Assembly: GCA_031264105.1 (NCBI GenBank)
Contig: JAISEM010000020.1
Location: 1-33,941, forward strand
Origin: Endomicrobium sp.
Lineage (GTDB): Bacteria; Elusimicrobiota; Endomicrobiia; Endomicrobiales; Endomicrobiaceae
Reading direction: 5' to 3'
Length of the DNA stretch: 33,941 nt
Numbering within the stretch: the stretch's first letter is position 1; every line of letters begins with the position of its first letter. This document shows, piece after piece, positions 19,137-33,941 of the stretch. Position numbers and translations under genes: made by a program. Below the pieces are notes generated by a model. It worked only from the letters and a program-made list of their open reading frames with translations. It ran no database searches and was not told the DNA's origin.

Positions 19137-21668
19137 CTATATCCACTTTATTAGTCCAGGGAGTATCTGAACTTCCCCTTCGTATTGCGGTAAAATATGT
19201 AAAGTATATCCACATTTTCCCACTTTGTCAATCAAAATTTTTCCTTCAAAAATATAATTATCACCCTCTTTTGAAACCAAATTCATTATACCTATGCTTG
19301 GCTCGCTTACAGATTGTCCGTCATGAATATATCCACTATAAATTTGCATATTGACATCATTTGACGAAATATCGCCTAAATAAACTTTTGCCTGAACAGT
19401 TATTTCACTGGAAATTTTCATCTCGTTAAAAATATTATCACTTGTTGAAATAAATTCTATAGTATTCCACTTATTGTAAATATTTTTTATCCATTCACTT
19501 TTTTTCTTTGCTGGTTCGTAGTTATCTTTTTTGTATTTGGTATATTCTAACGCGGTAGAAATATAAAATTTTTTCGTATATTCTTCTATCATCCTGTTAG
19601 TATTAAATACTGGTCCTAAAGTTTGCATTGAAAATTTCATTTTTTGTGTCCAGCCTCTAGGTACACCATCCTGACCTCTTGTAAAAAATAAAGGTATTAT
19701 TTCGTTTTCTAATATTTCATAAATATCTCTGCTTTCAACTAAATCCTGATAATCTCTGCCAGGATAACGCTTTATCGATCCAATAGTCCAACCATTACTA
19801 CCGTTATAACCTTCACACCGCCAACCATCAAGAACGCTAAAATTTAATACTCCATTTACTGCAGCTTTCATTCCACTGGTGCCAGATGCTTCTTCAGGCA
19901 TTAGAGGGTTGTTAAGCCAAATATCAAATCCTTGAACAAGGTAATGAGCAACATTTACATCATATTCTTCTAAAAATACCACTTTTCTCTCTAAATCTGG
20001 ATCTTTTGATAGAGAGATTATATTTTGGATAATTCTTTTACCAATATCATCTTGAGGATGAGCTTTTCCCGCAATTATTATTTGTACTGGAAATTCTTTA
20101 TTTGTCAAAATCTTTTTTATTCTATCTAAATCTTTAAATACTAAATTACCTCTTTTATAAGAAGCAAATCTCCTTGCAAAGCCTATAGTCAAAGCTTCTG
20201 GGTCTAAAACATCATCACTAAGATTTATTATCTTTCTTGTTGCGCCATTTCTTTCAAGTTGTTGTCTAAGTCTAGATCTTGCAAACGTAACAAGACGCTC
20301 TCTTCTTCTTTCATGACCTCTCCATATTTCCGCGTCAGGTATATGTATTACTCTATTCCAAATTGTGTGATCTGCAGGCTCATCTCTCCAAGCTTCACCT
20401 AAATATCTGTCAAATAAATCTGAAATTTCATTTGAAATCCAAGTGTTTGTATGGCCCCATTTGTTATATGCGTTATAGGAACTTCTCTTCTTGGTAAATT
20501 GATCCATATGCTTTGCCACATATCTCTGGCGACGGTAGCATGTAGTCTGCTTACACCGTTTGCTTTGTTTGAAGTCTTGAGTGCAAGTATAGTCATTGAA
20601 AAATCTTTTTGATTAAAAGGAAATTGCCCAAGCTGTAAAAGATGATCTTTTGATATACCAAGCTTCTGGCATAAAATTCCAAAATATTTTAAGAATAAAT
20701 CACATAAAAAACTTCATTGCCGGCTGGAACAGGAGTGTGTGTAGTAACACACAATTGCTTTTTACCACTTGAAATGCTGCATCAAAAGAAAGACCATCTT
20801 CCATATGTTGACGAATTTTCTCTAATAATAAAAAAGCCGAATGTCCTTCATTTATGTGTATAACATCTGGATCTATTTTTAAAGTTTTAAGTAGTTTTGC
20901 TCCACCGACTCCCAAGACTATTTCCTGACGGATACGCATGTCTCTGTCTCCGCCATATAATTGATCAGTAATGGTTTTTGCATCTTTTGAATTTTTATCT
21001 ATATTTGCGTCTAAAAGATATAGAGGGATTCTTCCTATTTTGATTTTCCAAGCTCTTGCATATATTGTTTGATTTGGGATATCAATATCAATTACAAGTT
21101 CGCTTCCATCGTCATTTTTTACAAGTTCAAGAGGCATATGAAGAAAATTATTTTCAACATATTCTTCTTGTTGCAAACCATCAAAACTTAAACGTTGCCT
21201 GAAATAGCCATATCTATACAAAAGACCAACACCGACAAGAGGAAGTCCCATGTCGCTTGCAGATTTTAAGCGATCTCCTGATAAAACACCAAGTCCTCCG
21301 GAATAAATAGGAATGCTTTCATGTATGGCAAATTCCGTGGAAAAAATATGCAAATTTAAGATTTGAATAGTCAGAACAATACTCTGCATACCAAGTATTC
21401 ATACTAAGATATCTGTCTAAAACTCTTTTTACTCTCTCTACATGAGAAACGAAACTGTCATCTTGAGAAAGCTCTGTAAGTTTTTCTTGACTTACAGCTT
21501 CAAGCATAGCTTTTGGATTATGAGCTGTTCCAACACCACCACATATTATCGGCAATTGCAATTAAAGGATTTAAGTTATTAGGAATGTTTGGTATGCCTA
21601 CAAAAGTTTTTACATTTTTAGCAGTATAAATTTCTTGTTTTTCGTTAAGTAAATCTAAATCCATACTA
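19137..21668 (-). pseudogene. glgP: Alpha-glucan (glycogen/maltodextrin) phosphorylase with about five frameshifts
   Basis: ORFs 21518-21721, 21319-21561, 20700-21389, 20399-20596 and 19137-20519 form one protein: DNMWWCWN, YFSTEFAIHESIPIYSGGLGVLSGD, HINEGHSAF, THTPVPAGNEVF, ITNG..HTNTW, FARRFASYKR, AGKAHPQDD, EASGTSGMKAAVNG. Confidence 0.92.
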
Positions 21669-21772
21669 GCTCCTTTAATACAAAGTTGTATATTGGAAAC
21701 TGTACTTAAATATTTAAACACGAAAGTCTAATACTAACGTAGGAAGCTAAATCAATTACTAATCATATTATG

Positions 21773-27033: not shown

Positions 27034-27180
27034 AACGACCTAAAAGTTGTATAAGTATACTAAAAACAACATCCTCCAGTCAAATTCTTATATTTATTTC
27101 TCAATATTTGCGCTCTATTTTTGATTTTTTTTAAATCAATGTACTATAATTCTTTTAGTAATAATTAATGGAGAAAACCA

Positions 27181-27578
27181 TGAACTCATTAGCCTTAAGA
27201 ATCTCTTATGCCGATACTGACCAAATGGGAATGGTTTACTACGCAAACTATCTAGATTTTTTTGAACGAGGACGTACCGAGCTTCTTAGAGAAATAGGTC
27301 TTGAATATAAAGCAATAGAAGAGAGAGGTTTTTATTTTCCCGTTATCCATGCTGAGTGCAAATATATTTCTCCAGCGAAATACGACCATATTATAACAAT
27401 AGAAACTAATATATCAGAGGTAACAGCTGCAAGCATTACTTGTTCATATGAAGTAAAATGTCATGAAAAGCTTTTAGTTATAGGGAAAACAAAACATCCT
27501 TTTGTAAATAAAGAGTTAAAACCTGTTCGGTTTCCAAAAGATATAAAAGATGTATTGGAAAAAAATCTTGAAAAATAA
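27181..27578 (+). CDS. YbgC-family acyl-CoA thioesterase (hotdog fold)
   Basis: RISYADTDQMGMVYYANYLDFFERGRTELLRE. Confidence 0.9.
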
Positions 27579-28137
27579 ACAATTAAAAGATGATTCTTAT
27601 TTTATATCTCAAGCTTTAAAAGAAGCTCAGAAAGCTTACAAAAAAGGTGAAGTTCCAATAGGTGCAATTATAACTCTTAAAAATAAAATAATTGCTCGTG
27701 GCTTTAATAAATGCATTATGTTATCTGACCCAACTGCTCATGCAGAAATTATTGCTTTACGTAAAGCTGCTAAAAAATTAAAAACCTATCGTTTGAACGA
27801 TTGTTTCTTATATGTTACAATCGAACCTTGTCCAATGTGCGCGGGCGCTCTTGTAAATGCAAGAATAAAAAAAATTATTTTTGGCGCGTACGATGTAAAA
27901 GCTGGCGCTTGTAAAAGTGTATTTGAAATAACAAATAATAAAAAACTTAATCATCAAATAGAATTTGATGGTAGTAAAAAAGAATATTTAAATACAGAAT
28001 GCGCAGGAATAATTAGAAACTTCTTTAAAAATAGGCGTAAAATCAACGGGGGTGAACAGGGTTCGACGGGAGTGATAGAGGTAATGGCAGCAGGCCGGAG
28101 TTGGTCGATGGCTCCGCAAAAATCGACCGAAAAATAA
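27550..28137 (+). CDS. tadA: tRNA-specific adenosine deaminase; ORF runs into tmRNA
   Basis: GEVPIGAII, TAHAEIIALRKAAK, EPCPMCAGALVNARI; conserved part ends near FFKNRRK (~28041), only stop is 28135-28137 inside tmRNA. Confidence 0.9.
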   Translation: MYWKKILKNKQLKDDSYFISQALKEAQKAYKKGEVPIGAIITLKNKIIARGFNKCIMLSDPTAHAEIIALRKAAKKLKTYRLNDCFLYVTIEPCPMCAGALVNARIKKIIFGAYDVKAGACKSVFEITNNKKLNHQIEFDGSKKEYLNTECAGIIRNFFKNRRKINGGEQGSTGVIEVMAAGRSWSMAPQKSTEK

Positions 28138-28425
28138 ACAACAAAACTGTTGTTCCAATGCACAACGTTAAGCCTTTCACGGCATTTAGCGTTATGCCTT
28201 TAGCTGCTTAACGCGGCTTCGTTTTACCTCTAGACGCCTGCTATATGGATAAAACGTCAAGAGCAGGCTAGTTTTAAGCTGCTTGCGCCGTCAGTTTAAA
28301 ATTAAATTAAAACGGCGCTGGTTTATAATGTAGTACCGTCCGATTACGGGATAAATTTTCGGACTAAGCCTGTAGCGGCCTTACTAAAACATTTTCGGAC
28401 GCGGGTTCAATTCCCGCCACCTCCA
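28048..28425 (+). ncRNA. ssrA: tmRNA
   Basis: Acceptor GGGGGTG/CACCTCC, T arm GGACGCGGGTTCAATTCCCGCC, H-type pseudoknot PK1 (CGGAG/CTCCG and GGTCGAT/ATCGACC), tag ORF ending ...VMPLAA-stop at 28211; 3' CCA not encoded. Confidence 0.93.
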
Positions 28426-28505
28426 CACCTCAAAGGATTTTCAGTTGAAGCAGATGCAAAACTGCTTATAAAATGAGGCGTTTCTTTGAGTTCGATAAGT
28501 CCTTC

Positions 28506-29897
28506 CTAAAAAACAAAACCTTTTGGGCTTATCAAACTCTGAACATCTTTTTTTATTTCCAGATTTCCCGTTTCCCAGATAGCGTCAACATTGTTCATAA
28601 AGAACTTTACGAAGTCCCAGCAGTCTTCCGTAATCTTATTTATTTTCTCTTCGTCCATTAAACAAGCTTTTTTCTCTTGAATTTGCGCTTCCAATATATC
28701 CACTTCTTTCTCACCTAATTTCTTTATCGTAATATCTTCTTTGTCTCTCATTAAAAGAAGCGTGCCTAATTGCTGCTTTTCTAATTCGAGAATTTCAGCC
28801 TTTAATCTTTTATTCTGTTCTGTAATATTAGTCGTCTTTTGCTCATAAATATCCATTGACATTTGCCTGAACATTTCAAGATGTTCTTCTTTGGGCTTCA
28901 ATGTTCTTAAATAGTTGAGATACGCAGCATCAACATCTTGCTTCCTGTATCGGCAACGCTTATTGCCCTGACAGTGATAATAAGGAAATCTCCCTTTTGC
29001 CAAACTTGGCGTCATTTTGTGGTTGTTAGCGTGGCAATAAATATAACGTCTCAACGTAAATATAGGATGGTCGTCAACTCTAATCTTATTATCTCTTTCT
29101 CTTCCGTTCAATTTGCGTTGGACAGACCAAAACAGTTCTTCCGATACGATAGGCTCGTGAATACCTTTGATTTGCTGCCCTTCTGCATTGAGTGTTAAAC
29201 CGCAATACTGAATTCTTTTTATGAGCTTCTCAAATGTTTGAGGCGGTATATCAACACCGTCTTTTTTCATAAGTTCCCTGACTTGTGTTTGATTATAGTT
29301 GTCGTCCAAAAGTTCAAAGATTTTCTTAACCGTAGGCGTGTCAGCGTTCAGATAAAGCTGCTTCTTGCCGGTTAAGTTATTGGTGCGGACATCATAACCG
29401 AACTTTTTATGATAATACCTTCCGCTGTTTTTGGCAGCCCTTACGCCGTTATTTATCCTTTCCGTAATCATTCCAAGTTCTAATTCGCCGATAGCGGCTT
29501 CTAAGTTTAGTATAAACTTTCCAAGAGCGTTATCTACATTCATTCCGTTTGTGAATAAAATTCTAACACCTTCCTTCCTTAAATGTCTTGACAGATACGC
29601 AAAGTCACCGACATTTCTTGAAAGCCTGTCAACCTTGTAACAGATTACCGCAGAGACATTATTATTCTTATCGTGGCAGAACTTTAACAATTCTTTTAAC
29701 TGCGTTCTGTCTGCCGTACCGCCGCTTTCGCCTTCTTCTCGGAAAACGCGTATAACTATATATCCACTCTTCTCTGCAAACTCTTTACACTTTCGCTCTT
29801 GGTTATCTAAACTTTCACCGCCCTTTGCCTGCTCCGCTGTTGAAACTCTTACATATATAACGACATACCCGGAAAATCCCGTTGTTACATTTAACAT
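28506..29897 (-). CDS. Large serine recombinase (resolvase + recombinase domain)
   Basis: YVRVSTAEQAKGGESLDNQ, YKVDRLSRNVGDF, recombinase and zinc ribbon-like segments, coiled coil. Confidence 0.92.
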   Translation of the reverse strand: MLNVTTGFSGYVVIYVRVSTAEQAKGGESLDNQERKCKEFAEKSGYIVIRVFREEGESGGTADRTQLKELLKFCHDKNNNVSAVICYKVDRLSRNVGDFAYLSRHLRKEGVRILFTNGMNVDNALGKFILNLEAAIGELELGMITERINNGVRAAKNSGRYYHKKFGYDVRTNNLTGKKQLYLNADTPTVKKIFELLDDNYNQTQVRELMKKDGVDIPPQTFEKLIKRIQYCGLTLNAEGQQIKGIHEPIVSEELFWSVQRKLNGRERDNKIRVDDHPIFTLRRYIYCHANNHKMTPSLAKGRFPYYHCQGNKRCRYRKQDVDAAYLNYLRTLKPKEEHLEMFRQMSMDIYEQKTTNITEQNKRLKAEILELEKQQLGTLLLMRDKEDITIKKLGEKEVDILEAQIQEKKACLMDEEKINKITEDCWDFVKFFMNNVDAIWETGNLEIKKDVQSLISPKGFVF

Positions 29898-29959
29898 AAC
29901 TCCTCCAAAAAAATCCGAGCGTAAGAGAGATTAACCCCTTACGCTCGTCGATGTTGTAA

Positions 29960-30405
29960 TTATTTATTTTTCGCTTTCCGTTTAGTTAATCCTACTTGCT
30001 GTGCCTTTCTAAATGCATCTTCGCTTACAATATGTTCGTGCATAGCCTTTATAAGAGCTTTTTCGTAATCAGCAACCGCTATTTCTATCGCTTGCATCAA
30101 CATATATTCGCTCACCACTACATCTGCAAAGAGAACTTCGATGCCCATCTTTTTAAGGTTTTTTACAAGAACCATATAATACGATATATCTCTTGAAAGT
30201 CTGGAAAGATTAGCGCAAATTATGGACGAATATGCTGAGCCTTTTTGTCAAGACAAGAATTTAAATATTCATAAGCGGTAAAGTCTTTGTCTTTTGTTGT
30301 TGCCGTTAAGTCTTTAAGAACGAAAAAGTAGCGACAGCGCTGTTCTTTCTCTTTTTGCTTCTTTTTCTCTTTGTGAATTGCTGTGGATAACTCTAATAAC
30401 TTAAG
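29960..30405 (-). pseudogene. Second serine-recombinase catalytic domain remnant, frameshifted
   Basis: RYFFVLKDLTATTKDKDFTAYEYLNSCLDKKAQ then frame change to SIICANLSRLSRDISYYMVLVKNLKKMGIEVLFADV...; N-terminus lost beside the IS. Confidence 0.6.
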
Positions 30406-30408
30406 CCG

Positions 30409-31107
30409 TCAATTGAACGCTTGCGAAAATGGCTCGCAATAAAATTCTTCCGGTGTCTCATATCCAAGACTTTGATGAAACCTGTTCTCGTTATAAAACC
30501 TTACAAAATTTGCTACTCCTTCTTTTAACTCTGATATTTCGCTGTAATACTTGAATTTTATATCTTCGTATTTTATCGTCTTCCAAAATCGCTCTATATA
30601 AATATTATCCATCGCTCTTCCTTTTCCGTCCATACTTATCCGCACTTTATGCGCTTCCAATATCCTTATAAATTCTTCACTTGTATATTGGCTTCCTTGA
30701 TCGCTGTTAAATATACAAGGTTCTCCGTATTTCGATAACGCTTCTTCCAGCGCCGATATACAAAATTCTTTTTCCATCGCGTTGCTTATTCGCCGACTCA
30801 ATACTTTTCGTGAATATAGGTCTATTATCGCCGTCATGCACACACAACATCCTCTCATATTTACATACGTTATGTCCATCGCCCATACCTGATTTGGGAA
30901 ACTTATTTTATAATCTTTCAGTAAATACGGATATTTCTTGTGCAGTTTATTGCTTATACTCGTCTTCTTCTTTTTTCTAAGCCCTTTTAGCCCAAACTGC
31001 CTCATTATTCGACGTATCTGCTTCAGCGTTACTTCAAACAATTCTTTTATAGCCTCATAAACCTTTCGGTATCCATAAAACGGCGTTTCTATCAACACTT
31101 CGTACAT
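30409..31107 (-). CDS. IS3-family transposase orfB, rve integrase core
   Basis: TPFYGYRKV, WAMDITYVNMRG, FNSDQGSQYTSEEF, NIYIERFWKTIKYEDI, YNENRFHQSLGYETPEEFY. Confidence 0.92.
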   Translation of the reverse strand: MYEVLIETPFYGYRKVYEAIKELFEVTLKQIRRIMRQFGLKGLRKKKKTSISNKLHKKYPYLLKDYKISFPNQVWAMDITYVNMRGCCVCMTAIIDLYSRKVLSRRISNAMEKEFCISALEEALSKYGEPCIFNSDQGSQYTSEEFIRILEAHKVRISMDGKGRAMDNIYIERFWKTIKYEDIKFKYYSEISELKEGVANFVRFYNENRFHQSLGYETPEEFYCEPFSQAFN

Positions 31108-31112
31108 CCACC

Positions 31113-31532
31113 CTAATATCGCATTCTTCCTTCCACATTTATGTCTCGCTTTTCATAATAATACCTCGAGCGACTTATGTTCAGCATTTTGCACTGTTCT
31201 TCTATGTTCAACTCTTCTATTTCAGGTTCAACAAGTCCGCCTCTTTCCCGTACAATGCTTGTACTTTTTTTTAGAAAACCTCGCTCGCTATGCGCTTTCC
31301 CTAACTGCTTTTGCAATTCCTCTATTACCGCTTCTTTCTGTTGTGTATCTTCATCTTTTTTATTTTTACGTCCAAATAATTCACTTGCGTTCTCTAGTAA
31401 CGTCTTTTTCCATAATCCTATCAAATTTGGATGAACCTCATATTGTTGCGCTATTTCGTTTATCGTTTTGTCGCCTTTTAGCGCTTCCAGCGCTACCTTT
31501 GCCTTAAATCCATCTTCGTAAATCTTTTTCAT
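31113..31532 (-). CDS. IS3-family transposase orfA fused in-frame to the N-terminus of orfB
   Basis: FKAKVALEALKGDKTINEIAQQYEVHPNLIGLWKK; then after A8 run EIEELNIEEQCKMLNISRSRYYYEKRD (orfB N-terminus). Confidence 0.85.
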   Translation of the reverse strand: MKKIYEDGFKAKVALEALKGDKTINEIAQQYEVHPNLIGLWKKTLLENASELFGRKNKKDEDTQQKEAVIEELQKQLGKAHSERGFLKKSTSIVRERGGLVEPEIEELNIEEQCKMLNISRSRYYYEKRDINVEGRMRY

Positions 31533-31617
31533 AAGCAGTTCCCTTTGGTTTTTTCAAAGCTTTCCACTTATTCTACCTTATTTTTTTTGTCCGATTTTTT
31601 TTGGCTCATTATAGAAG

Positions 31618-31803
31618 CTACGTGACACGCAAATCGTGACCGCTCTTTGACAGAAAAGCATAGGCTGCAAAAAACAGACCTGCAATCCCGATTGCCCAAA
31701 CGGCAAGATATTCATGCTCTTTAAGCCCTTCAAGGTTTATTGCCATGAAATATATTGACGCCAAAATGACTACTGTAACGAAAAATGACTGCAGTATCTT
31801 CAC
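31618..31803 (-). CDS. Small two-TM membrane protein, possibly altered at its C-terminus by the adjacent IS
   Basis: 61 aa ORF with two hydrophobic segments; stop is 7 nt from putative IS end. Confidence 0.5.
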   Translation of the reverse strand: MKILQSFFVTVVILASIYFMAINLEGLKEHEYLAVWAIGIAGLFFAAYAFLSKSGHDLRVT

Positions 31804-31872
31804 TTTTACTATTCCTCTTCAATTATTATTTTCCAATGCTGCCATTATACGAAATCAATATGAGAAATACAA

Positions 31873-32256
31873 ATGATTTATTTAAAACTGTCAGTGTTGT
31901 TATTGTTTGCTGTTTCTTTTTGTCCCTGCGCCGCCAAACACGAAACTTTTGTTGTTCCAAAAGATTTTAAGTACTCTGAAGTTACAGTTCCGGTAAAAGA
32001 TTTCATCATGAAAGGATTTGTTTTCAATGAAAATGGCGAACGCATAGGGTCTGAAATCACAAACGAAATGCTGATGAAGGAAGCGCAAAAACTCGGGGCG
32101 GATGCCGTACTGAACGTCAAAATTGATGTTTTTGAAGACAATAAATCTTCAAAATTTTTAGGCATAAAAATGCAGAAAAAACGCATTTACATATATAAAG
32201 CTTCTGCTCTTGCAATTAAATATACCGAAGCCATTGACTCGGGAGTGAAAAAATGA
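31873..32256 (+). CDS. Secreted/lipoprotein-like protein, possible YbjQ-like fold
   Basis: Signal peptide/lipobox-like LLFAVSFCPCAAK; MKEAQKLGADAVLNVKIDVFE. Confidence 0.6.
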   Translation: MIYLKLSVLLLFAVSFCPCAAKHETFVVPKDFKYSEVTVPVKDFIMKGFVFNENGERIGSEITNEMLMKEAQKLGADAVLNVKIDVFEDNKSSKFLGIKMQKKRIYIYKASALAIKYTEAIDSGVKK

Positions 32257-32495
32257 AGCTATATAAAATAGCTTTTGTTTTGTTTAGTATCAGGTATTGC
32301 TAATGCGACGAGCTTTGATGATTTGATAAATAAACGCTTGCAAGAGAAGAACAAGCAGCATTAGAAAAACAGGAAGAGATTGAGAAGCAAAAAGAATTGG
32401 AGAAGCAACAAAGGGAATTACAAAAGCAAATAGAAATAGCCAAACAACAGAAAGAACTAAAGAAGCTGCAAAAGGAACTTGGAATAAAACAGCGA
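32252..32495 (+). pseudogene. Secreted coiled-coil protein remnant, two frameshifts and 3' truncation
   Basis: MKLYKIAFVLF / SGIANATSFDDLINKRL / EEQAALEKQEEIEKQKELEKQQRELQKQIEIAKQQKELKKLQKELGIK in three frames on the plus strand. Confidence 0.65.
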
Positions 32496-32877
32496 CAATC
32501 CTACTTGTTTTTGGATCGTAAATAACCAAATCAACGTCAGGCAAATGCGAACCAAACTCGCCATAATCAACGCTCAAATTTCTTTTTACCAAACTCAATT
32601 CTTTTGATAAGTTAGCCCCATTTGTTCGCTCTAACCTATTGCCATTTACAACCTGTAATGCTAAAGTCCTAACCTCGTCACTAATAATATATTCAATCAA
32701 CTTTTCAAGATTTTTTCCTTTAAAAGCACGCCAAGATTGCTCATGGTCATCGCCTCTAAAATCTTTTTTATGTTGCTCTTTAGCTTCCTTCAAAACATTT
32801 GAAATATGGCGATATGTTTGTACGCCATATTTTTCCTTTTTCGTTTCGTAAATTTTAATAAGGTCATTTATAGTCAT
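32490..32877 (-). pseudogene. 3'-truncated type II restriction endonuclease-like gene (tentatively BsaWI-like)
   Basis: MTINDLIKIYETKKEKYGVQTYRHISNVL...GSHLPDVDLVIYDPKTSRIVAVL resembles PD-(D/E)XK nuclease up to the acidic motif; downstream residues of ORF 32290-32877 are antisense to the coiled-coil remnant. Confidence 0.6.
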
Positions 32878-32881
32878 AATC

Positions 32882-33941
32882 TTATTTTTCCATTATTAAT
32901 ATATATTCCGTTGGATAAACAGAAACCTTATTTTTATCGCTCATTCTTGCAAACTTGCCCGTTTTTTCATCTCTAAAAGACGGCAAATTTTTCGAAGGAA
33001 TTTCCCTTTTGATAATATCAACAATTCTTAATCCCAAATTTTGCAATTGCTCGGCAAAAACTTCGGCATTCAATATCTCAACTCCCCTTAAACTGGTATT
33101 ACCGATGACAATACAAGTTTTTCCACCTTCTTTTAGCATCCTTTTCATTTCAACAAAAACCTGATTCATTTCGCTAAAATAGGTAGAAACTTCTTCTGCG
33201 ATTTTGGAATCTCTTTTTAGCAATTCATTCCTTATTTTTTCAGCGATCTCACTATTTAAAATCAAATCTTTTTTATTGTAATAAGAAGTACCAATAAACC
33301 TTTTGCGAAAATCATTTAAATCTTTCGTGTATTCCAACCACAAAGCTGTTAGTTGGTGTAAATCTGCATATTCATAAGAGGTAACATAAGGGGGCGATGT
33401 GACAATTAAACTAACGGAATTATCTTTGGCAGGGACACTTCTAGCGTCAGCGCAGTAAACTTGACTTAATATTTCCAAATGATTTTTTTCTTTTGATAAT
33501 TCGTAAAACTGATCGTTCCCTCTCATCATCACTTTTATTTGCTTGTAAAAAGTCGGTACAGGGTCAGAAGGTTTTTTGTTTATGTCCCTTGTCGGTTTAT
33601 TGCTTTTCTGCAACCAAATAGAACAGTTTTTCAAAATGTTAGAAAATCCGCAATAGAAAAAATCTCTAATATCCTCATCTTTTAATTTTGAAATTTCAGC
33701 AAAAATAAACGCAAGTTTTCTTTTTTTCTTCGGGCTTAAACCAGTAATCAATTCTCTCGTGTTCAGGCGCTTTTACTTCTGTATCTTTCTCATATGCGTC
33801 TAGCTTTATCTTAAGAGTAGCGAATGCTTCTTCAATTTTCTGTGGGTCAATAGGAGTAATTTTCGCTTTCGTAATTAGAACAGCTACTGGATTTATATCA
33901 ACTCCAACTGAACAACGTCCCATAACTTTTGATTCAACAAG
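32882..33941 (-). pseudogene. DNA methyltransferase (N4-cytosine/N6-adenine type), frameshifted at an A7 run; 5' end beyond window
   Basis: GRCSVGVDINPVAVLITKAK ... HERIDYWFKPEEKKK | LAFIFAEISKLKDEDI ... VTSPPYVTSYEYADLHQLTALWLEY; two ORFs overlap at about 33700-33750. Confidence 0.85.

What the first reader, a model, noticed from the sequence alone, without database searches (positions are those of the whole stretch)
28030..28140. tadA reads without a stop about 90 nt into mature tmRNA
The TadA frame has no stop after its conserved C-terminus (FFKNRRK); the first in-frame stop (28135-28137) is inside ssrA, past pseudoknot PK1 and next to the tag start. If tadA and ssrA are co-transcribed, RNase P cleavage at the tmRNA 5' end (28048) would make the tadA message a non-stop mRNA, the substrate tmRNA rescues. 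This could be a built-in feedback linking tmRNA processing to TadA level, or simply a tolerated loss of stop in a shrinking genome.
Basis: partly seen in the sequence, partly recalled or inferred. Interest (0 to 1): 0.65.

Follow-up and report, generated by a model that had tools for sequence, protein, structure and literature searches.

The report
tadA gene running into tmRNA gene
In a termite-gut Endomicrobium the gene for a tRNA-editing enzyme (tadA) has lost its own stop codon and ends 90 bases inside the gene for the ribosome-rescue RNA (tmRNA); relatives show that this overlap comes and goes by drift, and that the tmRNA gene probably has its own promoter hidden inside tadA.

Summary
The tadA frame (27550-28137) has no stop before the mature tmRNA 5' end (28048); its first stop, UAA 28135-28137, is the UAA beside the tag's resume codon. 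Both genes look intact and single-copy. tadA and ssrA are same-strand neighbours in most Endomicrobia examined. In 71 pairs the tadA stop lies from 292 nt before to 108 nt inside ssrA. Sixteen overlap, in all three frames, with at least 9 state changes on a TadA tree. The closest relatives differ: one has an 8-nt overlap, the next a stop 2 nt before ssrA. That is drift at a tight junction, not a conserved circuit. tadA codons 82-91 carry a conserved extended -10 promoter (27793-27821) in 33 of 36 genus-mates, about 6 expected from codon usage. So ssrA probably has its own promoter inside tadA. RNase P cutting of read-through transcripts would still make a non-stop tadA message; that is untested. 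The same idea was published in 2014 for smpB-ssrA in Carsonella and for other genes overlapping tRNA/tmRNA genes. The overlap is a new instance of a known kind, unusually frequent here; the embedded promoter is the fresh element.

The parts
27121..27150 (+). candidate promoter of the thioesterase-tadA operon (TTGATT-N18-TATAAT)
   Evidence: consensus scan only; number of sites in the region is about the shuffle expectation
27168..27578 (+). YbgC/FadM-family acyl-CoA thioesterase gene, overlapping the start of tadA
   Evidence: ORF, TIGR00051 above cut-off
27550..28137 (+). tadA (tRNA adenosine-34 deaminase), frame open 90 nt into ssrA
   Evidence: ORF, NF008113 176.8 bits over cut-off 150
27793..27821 (+). 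predicted ssrA promoter inside tadA: -35 TTGAAC 27793-27798, 17-nt spacer, extended TG 27813-27814, -10 TACAAT 27816-27821; predicted start near 27828
   Evidence: consensus scan, synonymous-site conservation, 31/36 best site against shuffle maximum 21, 33/36 at score 10 or more against codon-usage null maximum 14
28039..28047 (+). junction where the tadA stop was lost (relatives read CGTAAAAAATAAAC or CGTAAAGTCAAAC before GGGGG)
28048..28428 (+). tmRNA gene ssrA (discriminator A at 28425; 3' CCA not encoded)
   Evidence: RF00023 151.3 bits, ARAGORN
28135..28137 (+). UAA that ends the tadA frame, part of the UAAAC context just before the resume codon
   Evidence: sequence, register shared by relatives
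28140..28211 (+). tmRNA tag reading frame NKTVVPMHNVKPFTAFSVMPLAA with its stop
   Evidence: register and -AA ending shared with relatives; ARAGORN's tag does not fit

Best explanation
ssrA sits directly behind tadA in Endomicrobia and is probably transcribed from its own sigma-70-type promoter embedded in tadA codons 82-91; RNase P trims the roughly 220-nt leader to give tmRNA (promoter inferred from conservation, trimming inferred from general tmRNA biology). Because tmRNA supply does not depend on tadA messages, and the end of TadA beyond FFKNRRK varies freely among relatives, the tadA stop drifts across the ssrA 5' end through small indels (shown by comparison). In this genome it was lost, so tadA translation runs on to the UAA beside the tmRNA resume codon, adding 30 residues. 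Read-through transcripts that RNase P cuts before or during translation become non-stop tadA messages that trans-translation clears (inferred). This is a tolerated by-product rather than an evolved regulator.
For: Stop positions from 292 nt before to 108 nt inside ssrA in 71 genomes, 16 overlaps in three frames, at least 9 state changes, nearest relatives differing. Conserved extended -10 promoter inside tadA in the genus and sister genera, not in G012 where ssrA is 1.8 kb away. Outside the phylum only 3 of 78 tadA loci reach the same motif score. SmpB and RNase P RNA are present in the genome.
Against: No transcript data. The motif lies 226 nt upstream of tmRNA, a long leader. The nulls ignore relatedness, and the peptide YVTIEPC itself favours the motif (synonymous-shuffle null still gives 13.6 of 36). 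L008 (another Elusimicrobia bacterium) has the motif without a neighbouring ssrA. Some genomes with adjacent ssrA (G078-G080) have only a weak version. The thioesterase negative control was too small to be informative.
Confidence: 0.68

Rival explanations
1. Built-in feedback: RNase P maturation of tmRNA truncates tadA mRNA, the non-stop product is tagged and degraded, so TadA level falls as tmRNA processing rises.
For: No terminator and no space between the genes, so tadA transcripts must enter ssrA; the cut would remove the stop. ArfA is a real case of non-stop control (PMC3985003).
Against: Overlap not conserved in nearest relatives; all frames and many lengths used. tmRNA seems to have its own promoter. 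No obvious reason why TadA should track tmRNA.
Confidence: 0.07
2. tadA and ssrA are only co-transcribed: all tmRNA comes from the thioesterase-tadA operon, and each transcript is used either as tadA message or as tmRNA.
For: Adjacent genes with no gap in many species; candidate promoter upstream of the operon; no promoter enrichment in the last 150 nt before ssrA.
Against: The conserved promoter block inside tadA has no other evident use; tmRNA is normally far more abundant than a tadA message (general knowledge).
Confidence: 0.15
3. Assembly or sequencing indel at the junction; the real gene has an ordinary stop.
For: Draft assembly; the phosphorylase gene is broken here but intact in G023.
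Against: G023 also lacks a stop before ssrA; G041 has the same 90-nt overlap; adding one A at the junction as in G023 only shortens the overlap to 8 nt.
Confidence: 0.08

Closest known systems
   Same: A protein gene upstream of ssrA, same strand, runs into ssrA, so tmRNA maturation should make a non-stop message; present in only some strains; extension residues look random; reduced symbiont genome.
   Different: Here the gene is tadA, not smpB, so there is no direct self-feedback through its own product; recurrence is wider (16 of 71 genomes, including genomes of about 2 Mb); an embedded ssrA promoter is inferred.
CDS-tRNA overlaps predicted to give non-stop mRNAs (survey in PMC4131195, Table 4)
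   Same: Same-strand CDS upstream of a processed RNA gene with the stop inside it; 250 cases counted there.
   Different: The survey puts same-strand overlaps at about 1 in 15000 mRNAs with few evolutionary events each; here one gene pair gains or loses overlap at least 9 times in one family.
ArfA control by RNase III cleavage and tmRNA (PMC3985003)
   Same: A programmed nuclease cut would create a non-stop message rescued by tmRNA.
   Different: ArfA's cut is functional and regulates rescue; here the arrangement is not conserved and no function of the cut is shown.
tRNA punctuation in mitochondria (own knowledge)
   Same: Processing of a downstream structured RNA defines the mRNA 3' end.
   Different: There polyadenylation completes a U or UA to a stop; here the cut leaves ...AUC AAC, which added A residues cannot turn into a stop.

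Membership tests
CDS overlapping a t(m)RNA gene, predicted non-stop mRNA | Same-strand CDS upstream with its stop inside the RNA gene | tested here: met
   tadA stop 28135-28137 inside tmRNA 28048-28428
CDS overlapping a t(m)RNA gene, predicted non-stop mRNA | CDS is a functional protein family member and the RNA gene is valid | tested here: met
   NF008113 over cut-off; RF00023 151.3 bits, good fold
CDS overlapping a t(m)RNA gene, predicted non-stop mRNA | The shared transcript is really cut at the RNA 5' end, leaving non-stop mRNA | not testable with these tools
   needs RNA 3'/5' end mapping; RNase P RNA present
Programmed non-stop autoregulation (ArfA type) | Arrangement conserved as a functional cut before the stop | tested here: not met
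   present in 16 of 71 genomes, differs between nearest relatives
Programmed non-stop autoregulation (ArfA type) | Product level depends on tmRNA activity | not testable with these tools
   no expression data
Mitochondrial-type tRNA punctuation | Cut leaves U or UA that poly(A) completes to a stop | tested here: not met
   sequence before 28048 ends AUCAAC in frame
Sigma-70 extended -10 promoter (for ssrA, inside tadA) | TTGACA-like -35, 16-18 nt spacer, TGNTATAAT-like -10, conserved beyond coding need | tested here: met
Sigma-70 extended -10 promoter (for ssrA, inside tadA) | Transcription starts there and yields tmRNA | not testable with these tools
   needs dRNA-seq or 5' RACE

The most novel reading that the evidence does not exclude
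tmRNA maturation by RNase P sets TadA level through non-stop decay, making ssrA and tadA a physically coupled pair whose balance shifts between species as the stop codon moves across the tmRNA 5' end.
Probability: 0.07. Interest if true: 0.75.

Novelty: new variant of a known kind. Interest (0 to 1): 0.42.

Why it matters
Endomicrobia give a natural series of species in which the same gene ends before, at, or well inside the tmRNA gene. That makes a published but untested idea (RNase P-made non-stop mRNAs from overlap with t(m)RNA genes) directly testable, and cautions that such overlaps can be tolerated rather than functional. The embedded promoter would explain how tmRNA supply stays independent of the upstream gene, and shows a second signal written over a protein-coding sequence.

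Tried and rejected
Promoter just upstream of ssrA: no clear positional enrichment within 150 nt. Selection for one overlap length or frame: none seen. tRNA-Arg(ACG) by anticodon pattern: matches no more frequent than the control, so undecided. Thioesterase 3' end as a negative control for synonymous conservation: only 11 usable genomes, top window 0.50, uninformative. Published Endomicrobium transcriptome paper: no mention of ssrA or tmRNA in its text. Literature: one paper holds both Endomicrobium and tmRNA, on another subject; 18 papers hold tadA, ssrA, overlap and tmRNA together, two were checked and do not describe this overlap; the Carsonella precedent is PMC4131195. G028 left out of counts: its tadA end and ssrA 5' half are fused; G012 and G093 left out of the gap counts because of distance.

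Full report
Observation. The tadA ORF spans 27550-28137 and the tmRNA 28048-28428, so 90 nt are shared. TadA is supported by NCBIfam above its cut-off and tmRNA by Rfam and ARAGORN; the RNA folds well. The stop UAA 28135-28137 lies two bases before the resume codon. The tag is best read as NKTVVPMHNVKPFTAFSVMPLAA*, because relatives share the register and the -AA ending; ARAGORN's tag does not fit this. The window belongs to a 0.99-Mb, 82%-complete draft genome with one tadA and one ssrA; the nearest named relatives are Candidatus Endomicrobiellum porotermitis and Endomicrobium sp..

Relatives. Searching 96 genomes of the class with tmRNA and TadA showed the two genes adjacent on one strand in most genomes where both lie on one contig. 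I fetched these and placed the tadA stop relative to the tmRNA 5' end in 71 usable pairs. Sixteen have no stop before ssrA: seven use the UGA of GGGGGUGA (8-nt overlap) and nine overlap by 12-108 nt. The reading frame alone explains the lengths. On a TadA tree of 55 family members the overlap changes state at least 9 times (many forks are weak, so the count is rough). G023 (95% identical TadA) overlaps by 8 nt, while G027 has its stop 2 nt before ssrA. Outside the phylum tadA is often followed by tRNA-Ser, and two loci overlap it, by 48 nt (L037) and 24 nt (L053).

Embedded promoter. A consensus scan flagged TTGAAC-N17-TACAAT with an extended TG inside tadA at 27793-27821; the scan alone proves nothing, since such sites are about as frequent in shuffles. 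But in 36 genus-mates codons 82-90 form the most conserved synonymous block apart from the 5' overlap with the thioesterase gene, which serves as a positive control. CGT, TTG, GAT, ATA, TAT, GTT and ACA are kept there although the gene elsewhere uses alternatives freely. The site is the best promoter of the tadA-ssrA stretch in 31 of 36 genomes (synonymous shuffle: mean 13.6, max 21), and 33 of 36 reach a motif score of 10 or more (codon-usage null: mean 6.5, max 14). Nine members of sister genera (G055-G066) keep it. G012, whose ssrA is 1.8 kb away, does not, though this is a single case. These nulls do not model relatedness, one outside locus (L008) has the motif without a neighbouring ssrA, and transcription was not measured.

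Mechanism. Shown: overlap, adjacency, drift of the stop, motif conservation. Inferred: the motif drives ssrA; RNase P trims the leader; tadA read-through transcripts are either translated to 28137 (30 extra residues) or cut and then rescued by tmRNA. SmpB and RNase P RNA are present. Feedback is not excluded but lacks the conservation that a function should leave.

Known background. PMC4131195 described smpB running into ssrA in Carsonella, named the feedback idea, and counted 250 same-strand upstream CDS overlaps with t(m)RNA genes; all same-strand overlaps together were about 1 in 15000 mRNAs. The present case is of that kind, with a different gene, unusually frequent recurrence, and an inferred embedded promoter. 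The ArfA precedent for functional non-stop control is in PMC3985003.

Verdict. A side observation may be the more surprising one: a clade of these bacteria has tmRNA tags of 43-47 residues with a hydrophobic, membrane-segment-like stretch.

Noticed in passing
L183, L184, L182, L177 (G017, G022, G025, G044); contrast L175 (G016): tmRNA tags of 43-47 residues with a hydrophobic, transmembrane-like stretch (for example KILGLGMFLLALLGIK, mean Kyte-Doolittle about 2.2 over 15 residues) in four species of one supported clade; the related G016 has a 22-residue tag without it. Such an SsrA tag could send rescued products to the membrane; not tested.
   Followed up: partly
window 28140-28211 and most related loci: Endomicrobia tmRNA tags are long (often 20-30 residues, ending in -AA), and ARAGORN mis-calls or misses many of them.
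   Followed up: partly
28427-33559: About 5.1 kb present here but not in relative G023, beginning exactly at the ssrA 3' end: serine recombinase (28506-29897), IS3-type transposase pair (30409-31532), a weak BsaWI-like restriction enzyme match (32290-32877) and a DNA methylase piece (32882-33751).
   Followed up: partly
19137-21721: Glycogen phosphorylase-like gene broken into several frames here, intact as an 860-aa ORF in G023: a decayed gene or assembly errors.
   Followed up: partly
L168 (G028): tadA 3' end fused to the middle of ssrA, lacking the tmRNA 5' half, with a short repeat in the tag region: deletion or misassembly.
   Followed up: no
L011, L037, L046, L053, L060 and others: In distant phyla tadA is often followed within a few tens of bases by tRNA-Ser (sometimes SRP RNA next), twice overlapping it: tadA repeatedly ends at an RNA-processing site.
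   Followed up: partly
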